Positions 1 to 5,203 of a stretch of 5,203 nt of DNA are shown here, piece after piece. Source of the DNA: Gammaproteobacteria bacterium (GTDB lineage: Bacteria; Pseudomonadota; Gammaproteobacteria; Tenderiales; Tenderiaceae). Numbering within the stretch: position 1 is the stretch's first letter; every line of letters begins with the position of its first letter. Both the position numbers and the translations under genes were made by a program. The stretch covers positions 1 through 5,203 of the forward strand of contig JALTMR010000242.1 of assembly GCA_027001525.1 (NCBI GenBank), in the 5' to 3' direction. Below the pieces are notes generated by a model that was not told the origin of the DNA, did not search any database, and saw only the letters and a program-made list of their open reading frames with translations.

Positions 1-153
1 CACCTGCACCACGATCTGCGGATCGGCAACATCGGGGATGGCATCCAGCGCTGCACCGCGAAGTGCATGAATGCTGTAAAACGCCAGCAACGCCAGCAGT
101 GTCAACAACAGCAGGCGGTGACGCAGCGACTGCCTAATGAGCGTGGTGAGCAT
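1..153 (-). CDS. RND efflux-type permease, heavy-metal (CusA/CzcA-like) subfamily, N-terminal fragment
   Basis: Only the first 51 codons are in the window; the gene continues past the left edge. The visible part has a basic N-terminus (LIRQSLRHR), one long hydrophobic stretch at about residues 13-30 that would be transmembrane helix 1, and then LDAIPDVADPQIVVQV. The DAIPD(V/L)xDxQ motif right after TM1 is typical of heavy-metal RND permeases such as CusA and CzcA. Family members are inner-membrane proton-driven trimers of about 1000 residues working with a periplasmic adaptor. The ATG at 153 lies inside the adaptor gene's 3' end (20-nt overlap), with an AGG at 159-161 on the minus strand as a likely ribosome site, so translation is probably coupled. 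It is the last visible gene of the operon led by the cobalamin riboswitch. The substrate (cobalt, another metal, or a corrinoid) cannot be read from this fragment. The family call is firm; the function is open. Confidence 0.88.
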   Translation of the reverse strand, partial: MLTTLIRQSLRHRLLLLTLLALLAFYSIHALRGAALDAIPDVADPQIVVQV

Positions 154-823
154 GGCTACCTGCTGCCGGTGACGATGGCGCCGCCAGCTGTTGCTGGGCG
201 TGGATAAAGAAGCTGCCGAGTGTCACCACCTGCTCACCCGCTGCCAGGCCGTGCAGCACCTGGGTATAGCGCTCCCCCCGAAGGCCGGTGTGAATGGTGC
301 GCGCCCGGTAGTGCCCCGCCTGGGACTGAACATATACCAGCGAACGCCCCTCCTGCTCGATAATCGCCTCCTTCGGCACTGCCAGAAAACGGCCCCGAGG
401 CACGATAATCTCCATTACGTAAAGCTGGCCTGGCCGGTGGCCGCTGCCCAGCAGGTCCGCCTGAATCATGACGCAGCCCTGTTGCGGCTCAAGCCGTCTG
501 AGCCACGCCTGCGCGGCGGATGATTTGCTCTGCGGCGCAAAGGCGATGATCCGTTGCCCGGGGGCCAGCAGCGCGGCATCAGCCAGACAGTGCCGTGCCT
601 GCAAACCGGTGCCGCGGCTATCCACTGCGCCGGCGGTGCGCACCCATTGCTGAATCTGCTGCCGCCCCACTGCGGCCAACGTCAGTGATAGCACCTGGCC
701 CTGCGCCTCGCTCACCGGGGTATCACGCGACGGAGCAGGACGGGTATGATCCCGAACACCCGCCTGGGCCAGCACCCCAGGCAGCATCAGAACCATCAGC
801 ACAAGCAGCAGCGACGTTTTCAT
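134..823 (-). CDS. Short periplasmic adaptor (membrane fusion protein) of an RND system, with His-rich C-terminus
   Basis: A protein of 229 residues with a signal peptide at 1 to about 21 (LLLVLMVLMLPGVLAQA). The region from about 125 to 215 resembles the C-terminal part of CusB/CzcB-type adaptors: RPGQLYVMEIIVPRG, then AVPKEAIIEQEGRSLVYVQ, then LHGLAAGEQVVTLGSFF. This corresponds to the end of the beta-barrel and the membrane-proximal domain. Usual adaptors have about 350-500 residues; here the lipoyl and alpha-helical hairpin parts, which normally reach a TolC-type channel, appear to be missing. The tail GSHAHHAH offers several His ligands for a metal, and there are two Cys, at about 79 and 117. 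I chose ATG 823 because AGGTGA at 830-835 sits 6 nt upstream; a GTG at 826 is too close to it. The gene follows the propeller gene by about 40 nt and overlaps the permease start by 20 nt. I see no frameshift within the frame, so it looks like a genuine compact adaptor. An internal deletion in an ancestor remains possible. Confidence 0.85.
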   Translation of the reverse strand: MKTSLLLVLMVLMLPGVLAQAGVRDHTRPAPSRDTPVSEAQGQVLSLTLAAVGRQQIQQWVRTAGAVDSRGTGLQARHCLADAALLAPGQRIIAFAPQSKSSAAQAWLRRLEPQQGCVMIQADLLGSGHRPGQLYVMEIIVPRGRFLAVPKEAIIEQEGRSLVYVQSQAGHYRARTIHTGLRGERYTQVLHGLAAGEQVVTLGSFFIHAQQQLAAPSSPAAGSHAHHAH

Positions 824-865
824 CACCGATCACCTGACGCCGGTTACCCTAAGTCCAACAGGCCC

Positions 866-2071
866 CTAGTGACAATAGTTGTCCTTACTGCTGAGGATGT
901 GTGTGCCCCAGGGGTAGAGCCCGACATTAGGCACGCGGGTGACCTCTTCACTGGCCGCATCGATCACATAGACGGAGTTATCGGTCGAGCTGGCAAGGTA
1001 GAGTTTTTGCTCGGCCGTGTCGGTGGTGGCGGTTTCAATCTGTAGATTGGTGCCGATCTTGATGCGACCGGCGGGTTTGAGCGTCTCCATATCGTAGACG
1101 TAGAGAAAACCGCTGCTGGAGCTGATCACGAAGGCTTTGTGGGCGGCAAAGTTGATGCCCATCATGTCGGGGCCGGATTCCAGCGTGGCGACCACTTCAT
1201 TTTTCTCGGTATCGATGAAAGAGACGGTCTCGTCACCGTTATTGGCCACCACCGCATAACGGCCACCGTGGCTCATGTAGGCACGCCAGGGGTCAGCACC
1301 GACACGGATCGTTTTCACCACTTTGTCTTCACGCGAATCGATGACGCCGACGATGCCCAAATCCCCGTCAGCAGCGTAGAGGTAGCGGCCATCGTTGCCG
1401 ATGCTGACGTTGGAGATCCCCTTGATCTCACCCAGGTAGCGCTCGGGGTCCAGCGCGGCAATGCCGGGCACGGTGCCGACGTGGATTTTCTTCAACAACT
1501 CATGGCGAGTCACATCGATCACCCCCACCCAGTGTGCACCGTAGTTGCCAACGTAGGCCTTGGTGCCATCGGGGGTAAAGGTGATGTTTAGCGGCTCGGC
1601 AAAACCGCGGATGCGTTTGATTTCCGTCAGCGAGGCCATATCGATCACTGAGACCGAATCCCCATCGGGGTTGCCCTGGTAGTAGTAGCGCCCATCCGGG
1701 GAGAAGGCCAGATGCTCGGGGGCAAAATCCACCGGAATCTCCTTGACCAGAGTCAGCGTGGCCACATCGATAATGTACGCCTTGTTGGCTCGCGTACCGC
1801 CGGTCACCACCCAGCGGCCGTCGCGGGACATCATCGCCATGTGCGGGTTGACGTTCCTGCCCAGAAAAACGCTGCCGATGATTTTGTTGGTCTCGACATC
1901 GAGAAAGGCGATGTCGTTGGAGTCGCGGTTAACGATGACCACCACTTTGGATGGGTCGGTAATCTTGATCTCTTTGTCGCCCGGGTCGCTCATGGGAGTC
2001 GCCACGGCCGGAGCCGCCATCACCAGCACCAGAAGCGGGCAGGCCAGAAGTAGTTTTTTTAATTTGGTCAT
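866..2071 (-). CDS. Secreted YVTN/YncE-family beta-propeller protein, candidate corrinoid- or metal-binding
   Basis: A protein of 401 residues. A signal peptide covers about 1-25 (basic start, hydrophobic core, APAVA before TP), suggesting periplasmic location. LLAC at 8-11 is too near the N-terminus for a normal lipobox. The mature part is built from about eight repeats of the kind SPDGRYxY...SVIDxxxxxxxxxIxVG, with ID-type signatures near residues 57, 101, 143, 185, 244, 286, 327 and 370. This is the YVTN/YncE pattern, related to the cytochrome d1 propeller, and predicts seven or eight blades, possibly with the first and last strands closing one blade. There is no CxxCH haem motif. The chain ends in NYCH, a free Cys-His pair that could bind a metal; His77 (NPHMAM) and His391 (WGTH) are other candidates. 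AGGA at 2079-2082 sits 7 nt before ATG 2071. It is the second gene of the B12-riboswitch operon, so corrinoid binding, as in Bacteroidetes BtuG, is an attractive but untested role. Confidence 0.9.
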   Translation of the reverse strand: MTKLKKLLLACPLLVLVMAAPAVATPMSDPGDKEIKITDPSKVVVIVNRDSNDIAFLDVETNKIIGSVFLGRNVNPHMAMMSRDGRWVVTGGTRANKAYIIDVATLTLVKEIPVDFAPEHLAFSPDGRYYYQGNPDGDSVSVIDMASLTEIKRIRGFAEPLNITFTPDGTKAYVGNYGAHWVGVIDVTRHELLKKIHVGTVPGIAALDPERYLGEIKGISNVSIGNDGRYLYAADGDLGIVGVIDSREDKVVKTIRVGADPWRAYMSHGGRYAVVANNGDETVSFIDTEKNEVVATLESGPDMMGINFAAHKAFVISSSSGFLYVYDMETLKPAGRIKIGTNLQIETATTDTAEQKLYLASSTDNSVYVIDAASEEVTRVPNVGLYPWGTHILSSKDNYCH

Positions 2072-2170
2072 TGTGTATTCCTGTATTCATTCATCCGCTG
2101 CCGAGCCAGGCTCGAACCTGCGTTCAGATAGCAATTACTTAAGGGCAGCTCTATTAATTCAAGCAGCCAC
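2072..2170 (-). other. Intergenic spacer between porin and propeller genes with small hairpin
   Basis: This 99-nt gap has no ORF of note. It holds the perfect inverted repeat CGAGCCTGGCTCG (2102-2114; stem of 5 with a 3-nt loop). Around it, GCTGCC (2097-2102) and GGCAGC (2144-2149) can pair at longer range but overlap the small hairpin by one base. There is no U-tract after either structure, so it is not a convincing terminator. It could stabilise or process the polycistronic mRNA. The ribosome site of the propeller gene (2079-2082) lies at its downstream end. Confidence 0.4.
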
Positions 2171-3493
2171 TCAGAAGCTGGCTTGAAGGCGGGTGCCGGG
2201 CACCAGGTAACTCACCGCCTCCGCAGCCGCCGCTTTTTCTGTCAGATAGGCAAGATGGAAAGAGAGCTGCAACTTCTCGGCGATGCGCAGGTTGTAGTAA
2301 CCCTCCACCAAACGCTCGTTGCTTTTGTCTGCCAGGTCAGAACCGCTGTAGCCGATGCCCCAGGCATCTTCGGGGTTAAAACCCAGGCCATTGGCAAACT
2401 GCACACCGGCGCTGTAGTGAATGTCATTTTCGCTGTTACCTTCCACCTCGTTATTGCCGTATCGGGTAAATGCGGTGATGCCGGCGCTCAGTTTTTGATC
2501 AAAGCTGAGGCCATGGGCGCTCAGGCCGCCACCGATGGTGTTGTCCTGACGGTACCAGAGGCGGTAGTTACCCTCCCCCATGCGCAGCGGGTTGGCGCGG
2601 TAGACAATCTCCACCAGCTGGTAAAGCGAGTCGGACAGGTTGGTGGCTGCATCGGTGCTCTGCTGGTAACCCAGCCGGGCGGAGAAGGCCCCCTTGGGGT
2701 CGTAGACCAGCGCCATGCCGGCCCCGTTTTCCGCCAGCCCCAGGGCCGGGTTGTTCACCAGAGAGTCGCTGAGAAACTGACTGGTTTCGTCATTGGCGGC
2801 AGCGTTGTTGTCGAAGTAGTTGGTCAGATCAACACGGCCAATGGTGAGCGAGAGCTGCTGGTCCCAGAGCTGGGTCATCAACCACGCCTCGCGCAGGCTC
2901 AGGTCATTTTGCTGCGTCAGGCGGGCGCCGTAGCCATTGGTCTGGGCCAGCTCACCATCAGTGCCATCGCCCTGCGGGGTGCCGCTCAGGCCGACGATAT
3001 CGGCAAAAAACATGGTGTATTGAGCCAGGCCGGCGGTGAAGTAGAGATCGGTGGAGGCCAGCTGATAGGTGCTGCCGTCCGCGCCCTGAGTCTGCCCCCG
3101 GTTCTGCTGCACGTTCTGCATCACGATGGCCGCGTCCACCCCGAGCTGAACATTGCGGCTTTCAGCATCCGCCAACGCTTCTTCAATTTTCTCGTTGATG
3201 GTTTGACGGCGGAACACGCGCTGGCGCTGGTAGGTCACTACTCGCTGGCTGCCGGGCACCTGAGTGTCGTGCTCGATGCCGTTTGCATCGATAAACACCT
3301 CGATGCGTTTAACGCTGGTCTCAGGGTCGGAAAGCACGGTGGTGGTTTCCAGTTCAATCAGCCGTTGCTCCAGCGCGTCGATGCGTTGCAGCAGCGCCTC
3401 GTCTGACTGCGCTTGCACCACCTGCGGCAGGGCCAGCGCAGCCAGCAGCACCGAGGTGCCCAAGCGGCATTTGCTTGTGTGTGTATGGGTCAT
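2171..3493 (-). CDS. OprB-like outer-membrane porin with N-terminal coiled coil
   Basis: A protein of 440 residues from ATG 3493. A signal peptide covers about 1-28 (LLAALALPQVVQA). It is followed by a short heptad-like helix at about 31-52 (LLQRIDALEQRLIELET), as found at the N-terminus of several trimeric porins. From about residue 110 to the end the sequence alternates like beta-strands and ends in LQASF, a terminal Phe expected for BAM-dependent insertion. The stretch SLREAWLMTQLWDQQLSLTI followed by GRVDLTNYFD, the middle part AFSARLGYQ and the final VPGTRLQASF resemble the carbohydrate-selective porin OprB family (Pfam 04966). An ATG at 3514 in frame would add MSRRRDR, but it has no ribosome site; ATG 3493 has a purine-rich GGAGAAGAG upstream. 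It is the first gene after the cobalamin riboswitch, 180 nt downstream of the aptamer. No TonB box is evident and it is not a BtuB-type receptor by length or motifs. A sugar substrate should not be assumed in this context. Confidence 0.85.
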   Translation of the reverse strand: MTHTHTSKCRLGTSVLLAALALPQVVQAQSDEALLQRIDALEQRLIELETTTVLSDPETSVKRIEVFIDANGIEHDTQVPGSQRVVTYQRQRVFRRQTINEKIEEALADAESRNVQLGVDAAIVMQNVQQNRGQTQGADGSTYQLASTDLYFTAGLAQYTMFFADIVGLSGTPQGDGTDGELAQTNGYGARLTQQNDLSLREAWLMTQLWDQQLSLTIGRVDLTNYFDNNAAANDETSQFLSDSLVNNPALGLAENGAGMALVYDPKGAFSARLGYQQSTDAATNLSDSLYQLVEIVYRANPLRMGEGNYRLWYRQDNTIGGGLSAHGLSFDQKLSAGITAFTRYGNNEVEGNSENDIHYSAGVQFANGLGFNPEDAWGIGYSGSDLADKSNERLVEGYYNLRIAEKLQLSFHLAYLTEKAAAAEAVSYLVPGTRLQASF

Positions 3494-3574
3494 TCTGTCT
3501 CTTCTCCGGGACATGAGTTAAAAAATCAAGTCAGCCGTGAAGATAGAAGGAGGGTGTAAAAAGGGAGGAGTGGC

Positions 3575-3628
3575 AAAAACGGCCCAACGCGCAGTTACTT
3601 TGCTACGCTGACAAGCTGACCGACCGTT
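3575..3628 (-). terminator. Probable expression-platform terminator of the cobalamin riboswitch
   Basis: On the minus strand, AACGGTC (3628-3622) can pair with GGCCGTT (3584-3578) with one U-G wobble, and the 3' arm runs directly into TTTTT (3579-3575). The enclosed region holds a second stem, GCGTAG with CTGCGC (6 bp including one U-G pair, 8-nt loop). The result is a two-tier hairpin followed by a U-run, located between the aptamer and the porin start codon. This is where a transcription-terminating expression platform would be. The interior loop is large and the U-run is shared with the stem base, so the call is moderate. The alternative is control of translation further downstream. Confidence 0.5.
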
Positions 3629-3641
3629 GCTCACCTACTTC

Positions 3642-3660
3642 CAATAGCCCCACGCTATCT
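3642..3660 (-). other. Small hairpin between aptamer and putative terminator
   Basis: ATAGC (3658-3654) and GCTAT (3648-3644) on the minus strand form a 5-bp stem with a 5-nt loop (GTGGG). It lies just 3' of the riboswitch aptamer. It may be part of the switching region, for example a loop that contacts the aptamer, but nothing in the sequence proves this. Confidence 0.35.
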
Positions 3661-3672
3661 CACAGTAGTCAA

Positions 3673-3867
3673 TTTCAGGCCGGTATACGGACTAATGATG
3701 CGAAGTAAACAGACTTCTGCTGTCTCGCCTTCCCGTGCACAGAGCACAGTGGCTGGAATTCTCCGGAGACAGCTTTACATCAATCACCGTTGCGGGGGCA
3801 GTATTGGAATAGCATCGCAATGCGCACCAATTTCCCGTTTAACTGGGAGGCACCTGAAAACAGGTGC
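3673..3867 (-). promoter_or_regulatory. Cobalamin (B12) riboswitch aptamer
   Basis: Read on the minus strand, the conserved core elements appear in the right order and spacing. They are GGTGCC (3853-3848), AGTTAAACGGGAA (3844-3832), TTGGTG with its partner CCAA (3830-3825 and 3807-3804), CTGCCCCCGCAAC (3801-3789), the B12 box GCCACTG (3753-3747), CGGGAAGGC (3735-3727) and AGTCCG...CCGGCCTG (3693-3676). The closing stem P1 is TTTCAGG (3859-3853) with CCTGAAA (3679-3673), 7 bp. CTGTGC and GCACGG pair as an arm between the B12 box and GGGAAGG. Riboswitches of this class bind adenosylcobalamin or other cobalamins and usually reduce expression of downstream genes for B12 synthesis, B12 uptake or cobalt uptake. 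The only genes downstream on this strand are the porin, propeller, adaptor and RND operon, so they are the regulated set. Confidence 0.96.
3850..3867 (-). other. Perfect 5'-leader hairpin that competes with riboswitch P1
   Basis: GCACCTG (3867-3861), a TTTT loop (3860-3857) and CAGGTGC (3856-3850) form a perfect 7-bp hairpin. Its 3' arm contains the CAGG used by P1 and most of the conserved GGTGCC, so hairpin and aptamer cannot form together. With the predicted start site near 3865, at least the inner five base pairs would be transcribed. Confidence 0.5.
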
Positions 3868-3871
3868 GAAC

Positions 3872-3899
3872 GGTATACCAGGGGAAGGAGGGGTGTCAA
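3872..3899 (-). promoter_or_regulatory. Sigma70-type promoter of the riboswitch operon
   Basis: On the minus strand a perfect -35 box TTGACA (3899-3894) is followed after 16 nt by TATACC (3877-3872), a 4/6 match to the -10 consensus. A start about 7 nt further, near 3865, would begin the transcript just before riboswitch P1. The position, between the upstream terminator and the aptamer, supports the call. Confidence 0.65.
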
Positions 3900-3937
3900 G
3901 ACCAGGATATCCGGCGAAATACACGATTGAGAGGCAT

Positions 3938-3967
3938 AAAAAAACCGCTTCACCTGAAACGGTTTTT
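3938..3967 (-). terminator. Strong intrinsic terminator, potentially bidirectional
   Basis: AAAAACCG (3940-3947) and CGGTTTTT (3960-3967) form the stem, extended by TTC/GAA across one C-A mismatch, with an ACCT loop. On the minus strand the hairpin is followed by a run of seven T (3944-3938). It lies 116 nt after the stop of the PstS-like gene and 38 nt before the -35 box of the next operon, so it separates the two units. The symmetric A- and T-runs would also allow termination on the plus strand. Confidence 0.8.
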
Positions 3968-4035
3968 ATGTAATACCCACAACAACAAGGTGAGGATTAA
4001 GCCCGCCTTACGGCACCGGGAAAAACACTGAAACG

Positions 4036-4061
4036 GCCCGTCAACACACTGTATGACGGGC
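4036..4061 (-). other. GC-rich hairpin downstream of the PstS-like gene
   Basis: GCCCGTCA (4036-4043) and TGACGGGC (4054-4061) form a perfect 8-bp stem with a 10-nt loop. It begins 22 nt after the stop codon of the PstS-like gene. On the minus strand the U-rich stretch that follows is interrupted (CGTTTCAGTGTTTTT), so it is at best a weak terminator. It may instead protect the 3' end of the mRNA, with termination at 3938-3967. Confidence 0.5.
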
Positions 4062-4083
4062 ATGCAGGACGCTCACCCCCCAC

Positions 4084-4530
4084 CTACTTGTCAATCAGCA
4101 ATACCTTTACCGAATCATCCGCAGCACCGCTATCAACATACCCCAGGGCACCGGGTGTTTTCGCCACCCAGTCGATGACATCGGCGTCGGAAGCAAAAGG
4201 CTTGGGAGGCGTCCCTTTGCCCGAGAAGACAATTTTTGCCCAATAGGACTTAAGCTTTTTTCCGCTCTTTTTGACGACATTGGCGTAAAACTGGTCCCGC
4301 GACGCATCACCCGGCTTCAGGTCTGCCAGTTTTACGTTGGTGCCCCCCAGTGACTTGCTTTTGCCTAACCAAAGTTTCTTGTCCTCTTTGGCGCTAATAG
4401 AATCTACGCTTATCCCTTTATTCGCTATCACGGCTACATCGGCAAACACCTGCCCCGCCATCAGAAAGAACAGCGACACAAAAACCACAGCCGCGTGTTT
4501 GATGCTCATTTTATTCAACTTGCGATACAT
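4084..4530 (-). CDS. Small secreted PstS-like (phosphate ABC transporter substrate-binding fold) protein
   Basis: A protein of 148 residues with a signal peptide at 1 to about 30 (AAVVFVSLFFLMAGQVFA before DV). The mature part has VAVIANKGISVDSISAKED, then WLGKSKSLGGTNVKLADLKP, then SYWAKIVFSGKGTPPKPFAS and VAKTPGALGYV. The FLGK/LGK motif, the SYW...FSGKGTPP motif and TPGAxGYV are typical of short PstS-related periplasmic proteins of about 140-160 residues, much shorter than true PstS (about 320). The start ATG 4530 is supported by AAGGAG with a 7-nt spacer. That site overlaps the stop of the upstream porin-like gene (12-nt gap), so the two are co-transcribed. No pstC, pstA or pstB is visible, so high-affinity phosphate import by this protein alone should not be assumed; related short proteins are often found paired with porins. 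Phosphate binding is a family inference. Confidence 0.85.
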   Translation of the reverse strand: MYRKLNKMSIKHAAVVFVSLFFLMAGQVFADVAVIANKGISVDSISAKEDKKLWLGKSKSLGGTNVKLADLKPGDASRDQFYANVVKKSGKKLKSYWAKIVFSGKGTPPKPFASDADVIDWVAKTPGALGYVDSGAADDSVKVLLIDK

Positions 4531-4542
4531 ATTCCGGCTCCT

Positions 4543-5203
4543 TTAGAAAATGATATCGACAGCGATGCTGGTCATGTTGGTGGAACCGCTGGAGGGTGGG
4601 CTGTCAAACAAACCCTGCTGGGTCGCGTAGTTATTCGTATCGATGCGACTTTGCTCGGCTTTGAACACCACTGCATCAGTGAGGCTGTAGGCAACACCCA
4701 CTGTGGAAATTTGATGATTGTCGCCGTTGCCCCGCTCCCAATTCTGGCGGGTGATATGAGGCAGGAGCTTGCCTAGCCGGTACCCCAGTGTGACGTACCA
4801 GGCATCAGAGTCACCAATGCGCTGCCCTCCGGCAGTCACATCCATCTCTACCTTCGCGACTTCGGCATAGGCCACGACGTCGTTCCAATCCAACTTGGCA
4901 CCGACCAGCTTGGCCGAATGGGCTTTCTCATTTATGACCGCCATCGGACCTGCGGGGTCTGTTTTCATGTTGCCCTGGTAGGTAGAGGCCTGAAACTCAA
5001 CGGTATCGTCCCAGTTGGCACGAAGGGTCACGCCCAGCGTTCCTTTTACCGTCATCCCCTCGAGATCCACCTGACCAAAAAAGAGATCACTTCCCAGGCT
5101 CCAGTCGCCGACCTCGCCTTCCCATAACAAGCTGGCACCGGTGTAGGCCTCACGAGTGGCCTGTGGCCCGACGGTCTCCTCGGAGTAAAGCAACAGCGGT
5201 GCC
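4543..5203 (-). CDS. Outer-membrane porin-like beta-barrel protein, C-terminal portion (partial)
   Basis: The frame is open from the right edge to TAA at 4543-4545, giving 219 visible residues; the true start lies outside the window. The TTG at 5193 is simply an internal Leu codon. The sequence alternates hydrophobic and polar residues with repeated aromatic girdle residues, for example WSLGSDLFFGQVDLEG, KGTLGVTLRANW, WYVTLGYRLGKLLPHI and VGVAYSLTDAVVFKAEQSRI. It ends in SIAVDIIF, with the terminal Phe of BAM substrates. This looks like the last eight or so strands of a porin-type barrel. The PstS-like gene follows after 12 nt, suggesting that the two products work together, perhaps in anion or phosphate-related uptake, but the substrate cannot be read from the sequence. 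Confidence 0.8.
   Translation of the reverse strand, partial: APLLLYSEETVGPQATREAYTGASLLWEGEVGDWSLGSDLFFGQVDLEGMTVKGTLGVTLRANWDDTVEFQASTYQGNMKTDPAGPMAVINEKAHSAKLVGAKLDWNDVVAYAEVAKVEMDVTAGGQRIGDSDAWYVTLGYRLGKLLPHITRQNWERGNGDNHQISTVGVAYSLTDAVVFKAEQSRIDTNNYATQQGLFDSPPSSGSTNMTSIAVDIIF

What the first reader, a model, noticed from the sequence alone, without database searches (positions are those of the whole stretch)
1..3900. B12-riboswitch-controlled porin, propeller, adaptor and RND operon: candidate new corrinoid or cobalt transport system
The sequence shows a well-conserved cobalamin riboswitch directly ahead of four co-directional, closely spaced genes that would span the envelope: outer-membrane porin, secreted beta-propeller, periplasmic adaptor and inner-membrane RND permease. 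Known B12-switch targets are B12 synthesis, BtuB/BtuFCD uptake, cobalt uptake and B12-independent isozymes. None of the four genes here is a standard member. Repression by B12 argues for acquisition or salvage of corrinoid or cobalt, or for handling of free cobalt. I do not know of a characterised system with this composition, but I cannot search for one.
Basis: partly seen in the sequence, partly recalled or inferred. Interest (0 to 1): 0.92.

Follow-up and report, generated by a model that had tools for sequence, protein, structure and literature searches.

The report
B12-switched copper-type pump operon
A vitamin B12-sensing RNA switch sits in front of a conserved four-gene envelope cassette whose pump, in relatives, has the key methionines of a known copper exporter; the cassette is predicted to switch on when B12 runs short and would likely keep copper out of the way while the cell builds B12 with cobalt.

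Summary
A full-length cobalamin riboswitch (85.9 bits) precedes porin, propeller, short adaptor and the first 51 codons of an RND pump; the contig ends there. The gene order recurs in 34 of 41 related loci. A B12 switch precedes the cassette in 14 of 38 loci with enough upstream sequence, in four phyla. Switch-bearing genomes tend to be de novo corrin makers (CbiC in 10 of 14, against 0 of 24 without the switch), and most already have BtuB-like receptors and CbiM or CbtA. So the cassette is no stand-in for these. The pump is CusA-type: the Met triad is present in 30 of 30 relatives that cover it and in 0 of 4 control pumps. The adaptor appears to lack the part that reaches a TolC channel. The propeller is modelled with eight blades, structurally closest to cytochrome cd1. 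Best guess: a Cus-like Cu(I)-handling system recruited into the B12 regulon to favour cobalt (0.4). Main rival: a corrinoid- or tetrapyrrole-binding uptake system. No biochemistry supports either.

The parts
3661..3872 (-). cobalamin riboswitch aptamer (RF00174)
   Evidence: 85.9 bits, E 7.2e-21, model 1-189 of 189; one of three in the assembly
3643..3659 (-). hairpin GAUAGC-GUGGG-GCUAUU just after the aptamer, likely P13/L13, whose loop could pair with the C-rich L5
   Evidence: in both MFE and centroid folds; GCGTGGGGCT kept in 7 of the 8 gammaproteobacterial switches aligned, L015 differing and L042 not aligned. The name P13/L13 is recalled; pairing not tested
2171..3514 (-). outer-membrane porin, OprB-like, signal-like N-terminus (by eye), helix before the barrel; better start by eye 3493
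866..2071 (-). eight-bladed YVTN beta-propeller with signal-like N-terminus (by eye), d1-haem-domain-like fold
   Evidence: (TIGR02276)
134..826 (-). short periplasmic adaptor, His-rich C-terminus SHAHHAH
   Evidence: matches only positions 235-318 of 322 of RND_mfp
1..153 (-). start of RND pump (51 aa), cut by contig end
   Evidence: TIGR00914 E 9.2e-6, profile 1-50

Best explanation
This is a cassette with a CusA-family pump gene placed behind a cobalamin riboswitch, predicted to be made when cobalamin is scarce and to likely move Cu(I) out of the way of cobalt during corrin synthesis. Shown here: the switch, the gene order, the recurrence of the switch in four phyla, the association with de novo corrin synthesis, the CusA-type Met triad of the pump in relatives, and the eight-bladed d1-like propeller model. 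Inferred: low B12 lets the leader be translated; the RND pump uses the proton gradient to pick up Cu(I); the short adaptor, apparently without the hairpin that docks a TolC channel, passes it to the His/Met/Cys-bearing propeller or releases it in the periplasm; the porin lets it leave. Less free copper would then compete with Co(II) at chelatases and cobalt importers, which the same B12 signal would induce.
For: Pump: the L006 pump scores 705 bits to CusA against 402 to ZneA; equivalents of M573, M623 and M672 in 30 of 30 cassette pumps that cover them (37 rows, 7 cut short); the Met triad is in 0 of 4 other RND proteins from the same loci, two of which look like near copies of each other, while the E625 equivalent also occurs in 3 of those 4 and so does not discriminate. 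Copper-type partners: HMBD on the adaptor in L035 and L036, both switch-bearing; CopC fused to the adaptor in L034 and CusF downstream in L046, both switchless. B12 link: switch in 14 of 38; CbiC 10/14 vs 0/24, Fisher 2e-6, uncorrected for kinship; within Pseudomonadota 7/10 vs 0/5, p 0.026. B12 control confined mostly to corrin makers fits metal supply better than vitamin salvage: 18 of the 19 switchless Acidobacteria have a B12 switch elsewhere but not here.
Against: No transport or binding data. The window's own pump is cut at 51 aa, so its Met triad is untested. PMC7895991 (passages) calculates that CobW will not acquire Cu(I) in cells although it binds it more tightly than Co(II), so cytosolic copper may not threaten cobalt delivery. 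Four switch-bearing genomes show no CbiC (G376, G377, G385, G406), some perhaps through incompleteness; in G385 the cassette switch is the only RF00174 hit. Within Gammaproteobacteria alone the CbiC link is 6/9 vs 0/3, p 0.18. Corrin makers and Acidobacteria also differ by descent. A d1-like propeller points to a tetrapyrrole at least as much as to copper.
Confidence: 0.4

Rival explanations
1. Corrinoid or tetrapyrrole trafficking: the secreted d1-like propeller binds a corrinoid or corrin precursor through its invariant His77, the porin admits it, and the RND/adaptor pair energises or recycles the process.
Against: 0 of 19 Acidobacteria, which lack CbiC and might salvage, have the switch here; BtuB-like receptors behind other B12 switches exist in 10 of 14 switch-bearing genomes; no TonB plug domain among the window proteins; CusA-type Met triad unexplained. 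The four NirF- or NirN-size proteins aligned did not place His77 on such a His, and the profile alignment with NirS failed. By sequence the nearest solved structure is an archaeal surface-layer YVTN protein, not cd1.
Confidence: 0.22
2. A cobalt-acquisition system: porin and propeller collect Co(II) for the inner-membrane importer, with the RND pump sharpening selectivity or running in an unusual mode.
For: CbiC link and CbiM/CbtA in 10 of 14 switch-bearing genomes; 3 or more His in the last 12 residues of 10 of 13 switch-bearing adaptors; predicted Co transporters track B12 makers (PMC2667541, passages).
Against: Pumps of this family are known as exporters (recalled); Met triad is Cu/Ag-type; such His tails also occur in 6 of 21 switchless adaptors, one of them (L033) from an unsure reading frame; Co importers already present in most.
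Confidence: 0.15
3. An ordinary copper/silver defence cassette whose B12 switch was picked up locally and matters little.
For: Switch missing in 24 of 38 loci; copper partners in both alphaproteobacterial loci; cassette is rare and patchy (propeller in 2 of 95 and 3 of 369 genomes, own included).
Against: The switch and its downstream hairpin are conserved among gammas; one switch-bearing locus (L023, a beta) lies inside the mostly switchless half of the tree, so the link arose or persisted more than once.
Confidence: 0.13

Closest known systems
CusCFBA Cu(I)/Ag(I) efflux system (HME-RND)
   Same: CusA-type pump with Met triad in relatives; periplasmic adaptor; HMBD, CopC or CusF partners in four loci
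   Different: Adaptor apparently lacks lipoyl/hairpin region; OprB-like porin, no TolC-type channel seen; added propeller; B12 switch in some
Cytochrome cd1 / NirN / NirF propellers
   Same: Eight blades; His77 on the NirS-type His and Arg-Asp before it in 4 of 4 NirS-size alignments
   Different: No cytochrome c domain; no other PF02239 match in the own genome; nearest by sequence is a surface-layer YVTN protein; ligand unknown
B12-regulon transport genes (BtuB/FCD, CbiMNQO, CbtA)
   Same: Cobalamin riboswitch; tracks de novo B12 makers
   Different: No Pfam match of the window proteins to these families; coexists with them
OprB carbohydrate porin
   Different: Helix before the barrel; substrate unknown; gene context

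Membership tests
Cobalamin riboswitch RF00174 | Score above the Rfam gathering score over the whole model | tested here: met
   85.9 vs 31.5 bits, positions 1-189
Cobalamin riboswitch RF00174 | Represses downstream genes when cobalamin binds | not testable with these tools
   needs expression data; leader fold z -0.09; no terminator-like site on the coding strand in 3400-4150
CusA-type HME-RND (copper/silver) | Met triad of CusA (573, 623, 672; roles recalled) | tested here: met
   relatives only: 30 of 30 covering rows of 37, control RND proteins 0 of 4; the window's own pump ends at residue 51, so it is untested there
CusCBA tripartite pump | Adaptor with lipoyl and alpha-hairpin domains | tested here: not met
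   230 aa; only profile positions 235-318 of 322 match; alignment. No structure predicted
CusCBA tripartite pump | TolC-type outer-membrane factor in the operon | tested here: inconclusive
   none among the window proteins, porin is an OprB-like barrel, and no other family recurs in more than 7 of 42 loci; but the window stops inside the pump gene and flanks of relatives were not scanned for such channels
d1-haem propellers (NirS/NirN/NirF) | Eight-bladed propeller fold closest to cd1 | tested here: met
d1-haem propellers (NirS/NirN/NirF) | Axial His in first blade | tested here: inconclusive
   His77 in 42 of 42 rows, on the NirS-type His in 4 of 4 NirS-size proteins but 0 of 4 NirF/NirN-size ones; that it is the d1 ligand is recalled
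d1-haem propellers (NirS/NirN/NirF) | Binds d1 haem or another tetrapyrrole | not testable with these tools
   needs purified protein
BtuG B12-binding propeller | Sequence or structural relation to BtuG | tested here: inconclusive
   DUF5074 E 1e-9, a link to BtuG recalled only; no BtuG entry recognised in the rows shown
Known cobalt importers (CbiM, CbtA, NicO) | Sequence membership of a cassette gene | tested here: not met
   no such Pfam match among the window proteins
Predicted Co transporters CbtC-CbtG, CbtX | Sequence membership of a cassette gene | not tested
   the defining paper is not held
BtuB TonB-dependent receptor | Plug and TonB-dependent barrel | tested here: not met
   no plug domain in the window proteins; a separate switch-preceded receptor lies in L001

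The most novel reading that the evidence does not exclude
A new B12-regulon machine that polices metal identity in corrin synthesis: a secreted cd1-like propeller holds a corrinoid or tetrapyrrole, possibly a copper-mismetalated one, and a hairpin-less CusA-type pump with a porin clears the wrong metal across the envelope whenever cobalamin is low.
Probability: 0.14. Interest if true: 0.92.

Novelty: new variant of a known kind. Interest (0 to 1): 0.7.

Why it matters
The PMC3766115 survey (passages read) sorts cobalamin-switch targets into B12 synthesis, B12 and precursor transport, cobalt transport and isozymes of B12-dependent enzymes. A copper-type export cassette kept under the B12 switch in four phyla would add a fifth kind, metal exclusion, and make a testable link between copper control and cobalt use. 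The d1-like propeller with an invariant His would also be a candidate for a new extracytoplasmic tetrapyrrole-binding protein.

Tried and rejected
Rejected: replacement of btuB or of cobalt import (both kinds present behind B12 switches in this genome). NicO adds little: above its cut-off in 1 of the 14 switch-bearing genomes. Rejected: a heme d1 enzyme in this host (the only PF02239 matches in this incomplete assembly are the window's propeller). Led nowhere: profile alignment with NirS gave two columns, and NirF/NirN aligned in other blade registers; local alignment was run on 8 of 11 extracted PF02239 proteins, and only the four of NirS size put His77 on a His (the names go by size and score). 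Expression platform by folding (z -0.09); promoter scan. The sR28 match at 794-854 is below its cut-off. Fold lists showed no BtuG entry, which is not evidence of absence. Weak-match Rfam scans of 11 loci added one B12 switch, L036; switchless loci scanned only at the gathering score could hide degenerate switches, although an RF01482 search of 29 genomes put no hit, by my reading of coordinates without contig names, before another cassette. Dropped before counts: L047 (same place as L011); L008, L012, L025, L030 (porin at or near a contig end), of which L008's genome has CbiC and the other three do not. L027 has only 588 bases before its porin. Adaptor counts use 13 of 14 switch-bearing and 21 of 24 switchless loci. 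Switch alignment used 11 of 14 switches. The scan that found the loci used two peptide patterns, so the set is a sample. One search counts one genome twice (G206 is G381).

Literature: searches listed, by title and start of abstract, no paper on this cassette; the library is open-access only and the 2003 B12 comparative-genomics paper is not held, so prior description is not excluded. Papers seen as passages: PMC2864759, PMC7689651, PMC3766115, PMC2667541, PMC7895991. PMC8889760 (cobalamin cbiP mutant and copper stress) seen as title and start of abstract only.

Full report
What is in the window. The 5,203-base window is a whole contig (C242) of a 2.75 Mb, 583-contig assembly, 88% complete, whose closest cassettes are in gammaproteobacteria. 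On the minus strand lie a cobalamin riboswitch (3872-3661) and then porin, YVTN propeller, adaptor and the first 51 codons of a CusA/CzcA-family RND pump. A short hairpin follows the aptamer (3659-3643); its GCGTGGGGCT core is kept in 7 of the 8 gammaproteobacterial switches that I aligned. I take it for the regulatory P13/L13 hairpin; that name is recalled and pairing with L5 was not tested.

The cassette elsewhere. A profile of the propeller (29 sequences) found 41 loci in genome records. Anchored searches show the four genes in the same order in 34 of 41; five more (L019, L021, L030, L031, L039) keep the order until their contig ends; L025 has no adaptor between propeller and pump, and L033 could not be read cleanly. 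The records are titled Gamma- and Alphaproteobacteria and Dechloromonas (a beta), Acidobacteria and kin, Nitrospirae, Nitrospina/Nitrospinaceae and Spirochaetia. The propeller is strongly conserved (73-93% identity to the window's in the 29) but rare: 2 of 95 relatives and 3 of 369 genomes of the class, own genome included.

The switch elsewhere. Of 42 cassettes (41 plus the window), 38 have enough sequence before the porin. Fourteen carry a B12 switch there: nine gammas including the window, one beta (L023, switch cut at its 5' end), one Nitrospirae, two Nitrospina, one Spirochaetia (L036, AdoCbl family at 46.6 bits, just under its cut-off of 50). Thus 9 of 12 gammas have it (L010, L013 and L016 do not), but 0 of 19 Acidobacteria and 0 of 2 alphas. 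The propeller tree needs four changes of this label, at least three of them forced by well-supported branches, and the beta lies inside the mostly switchless half.

What the switch tracks. CbiC, a marker of de novo corrin synthesis, is in 10 of 14 switch-bearing and 0 of 24 switchless genomes (Fisher 2e-6, which ignores kinship). Within Pseudomonadota it is 7/10 against 0/5 (p 0.026); within gammas 6/9 against 0/3 (p 0.18). A B12 switch somewhere in the genome is common: 39 of 42 genomes searched (one counted twice), including 18 of the 19 switchless Acidobacteria. So those organisms have B12 switches but do not put this cassette under one. CbiM or CbtA is in 10 of 14 switch-bearing and 2 of 24 switchless genomes. 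Comparing coordinates, 10 of 14 switch-bearing genomes have a BtuB-like receptor behind another B12 switch, none reaching the strict BtuB cut-off. In the window's own genome one switch precedes a TonB receptor and another precedes cbiA, cbiM, a corrin methylase, cbiX and cbiC. In L006 cbiA follows the cassette; in L011 a divergent switch precedes cobO and a cbiA-cluster gene, and L009 has a divergent switch and a cbiA-cluster gene.

The pump. A complete relative (L006) scores 705 bits to CusA and 402 to ZneA. CusA's copper-binding methionines (residue roles recalled) are present in all 30 cassette pumps that cover them, of 37 rows; the other seven are cut short. Four other RND proteins from the same loci lack the triad, two of them apparently near copies of each other and one with a gap at the third site; the neighbouring Glu does not discriminate. 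The window's own pump is too short to test.

The adaptor. It is 230 aa, and only positions 235-318 of the 322-position RND adaptor profile match; in L034, 191-318. I infer that the lipoyl and hairpin parts are missing; no structure was predicted. Its tail is His-rich here and in many relatives, with or without the switch (10 of 13 and 6 of 21). L035 and L036, both switch-bearing, carry an HMBD metal domain; L034 has a CopC domain and L046 a CusF gene downstream, both switchless. These speak for copper.

Reading. The metal clues point to Cu(I); the switch and its companions point to corrin synthesis. I join them as a copper-handling system that is expressed when cobalamin is short so that cobalt meets less competition. 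The review PMC7689651 (passages) sets out why copper outcompetes cobalt at protein sites and notes that copper may be more available outside the cytosol. Against this, PMC7895991 (passages) calculates that CobW would not take Cu(I) in cells, so any benefit would more likely lie in the periplasm or at other sites. The corrinoid/tetrapyrrole rival has the propeller on its side and is not excluded.

Noticed in passing
window 4084-5202, minus strand: A 148-aa protein with a weak PstS-like match (TIGR02136, E 0.006) and a Porin_4 barrel lie upstream on the same strand; they look like a separate unit. By eye a hairpin with a T-run lies near 3940-3970; the scan does not list it.
   Followed up: no
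L037 3-1072: A second, diverged propeller behind its own strong B12 switch (116.6 bits), divergent from the cassette, cut by the contig end.
   Followed up: partly
L035 1921-3163: Two B12 switches in the same direction before the cassette, with a 157-aa protein of no Pfam match between them that looks membrane-embedded by eye.
   Followed up: partly
L010 1947-2996 and L013 275-1312: In two switchless gammas a LysR-type regulator, by eye, is divergent from the porin, perhaps an alternative control.
   Followed up: no
L031 1459-3972: An acidobacterial B12 switch precedes a TonB-dependent-receptor-like gene (by eye), 6.5 kb before the cassette.
   Followed up: partly
L094 4347-5258: The CbiX chelatase of this genome has a His-rich C-terminal tail.
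   Followed up: no
L034 15367-15723, L046 11900-12292: Small c-type-cytochrome-like genes (CxxCH by eye; the L046 one matches SorB weakly) follow the cassette in both alphaproteobacteria; with a cd1-like propeller this hints at a redox role.
   Followed up: partly
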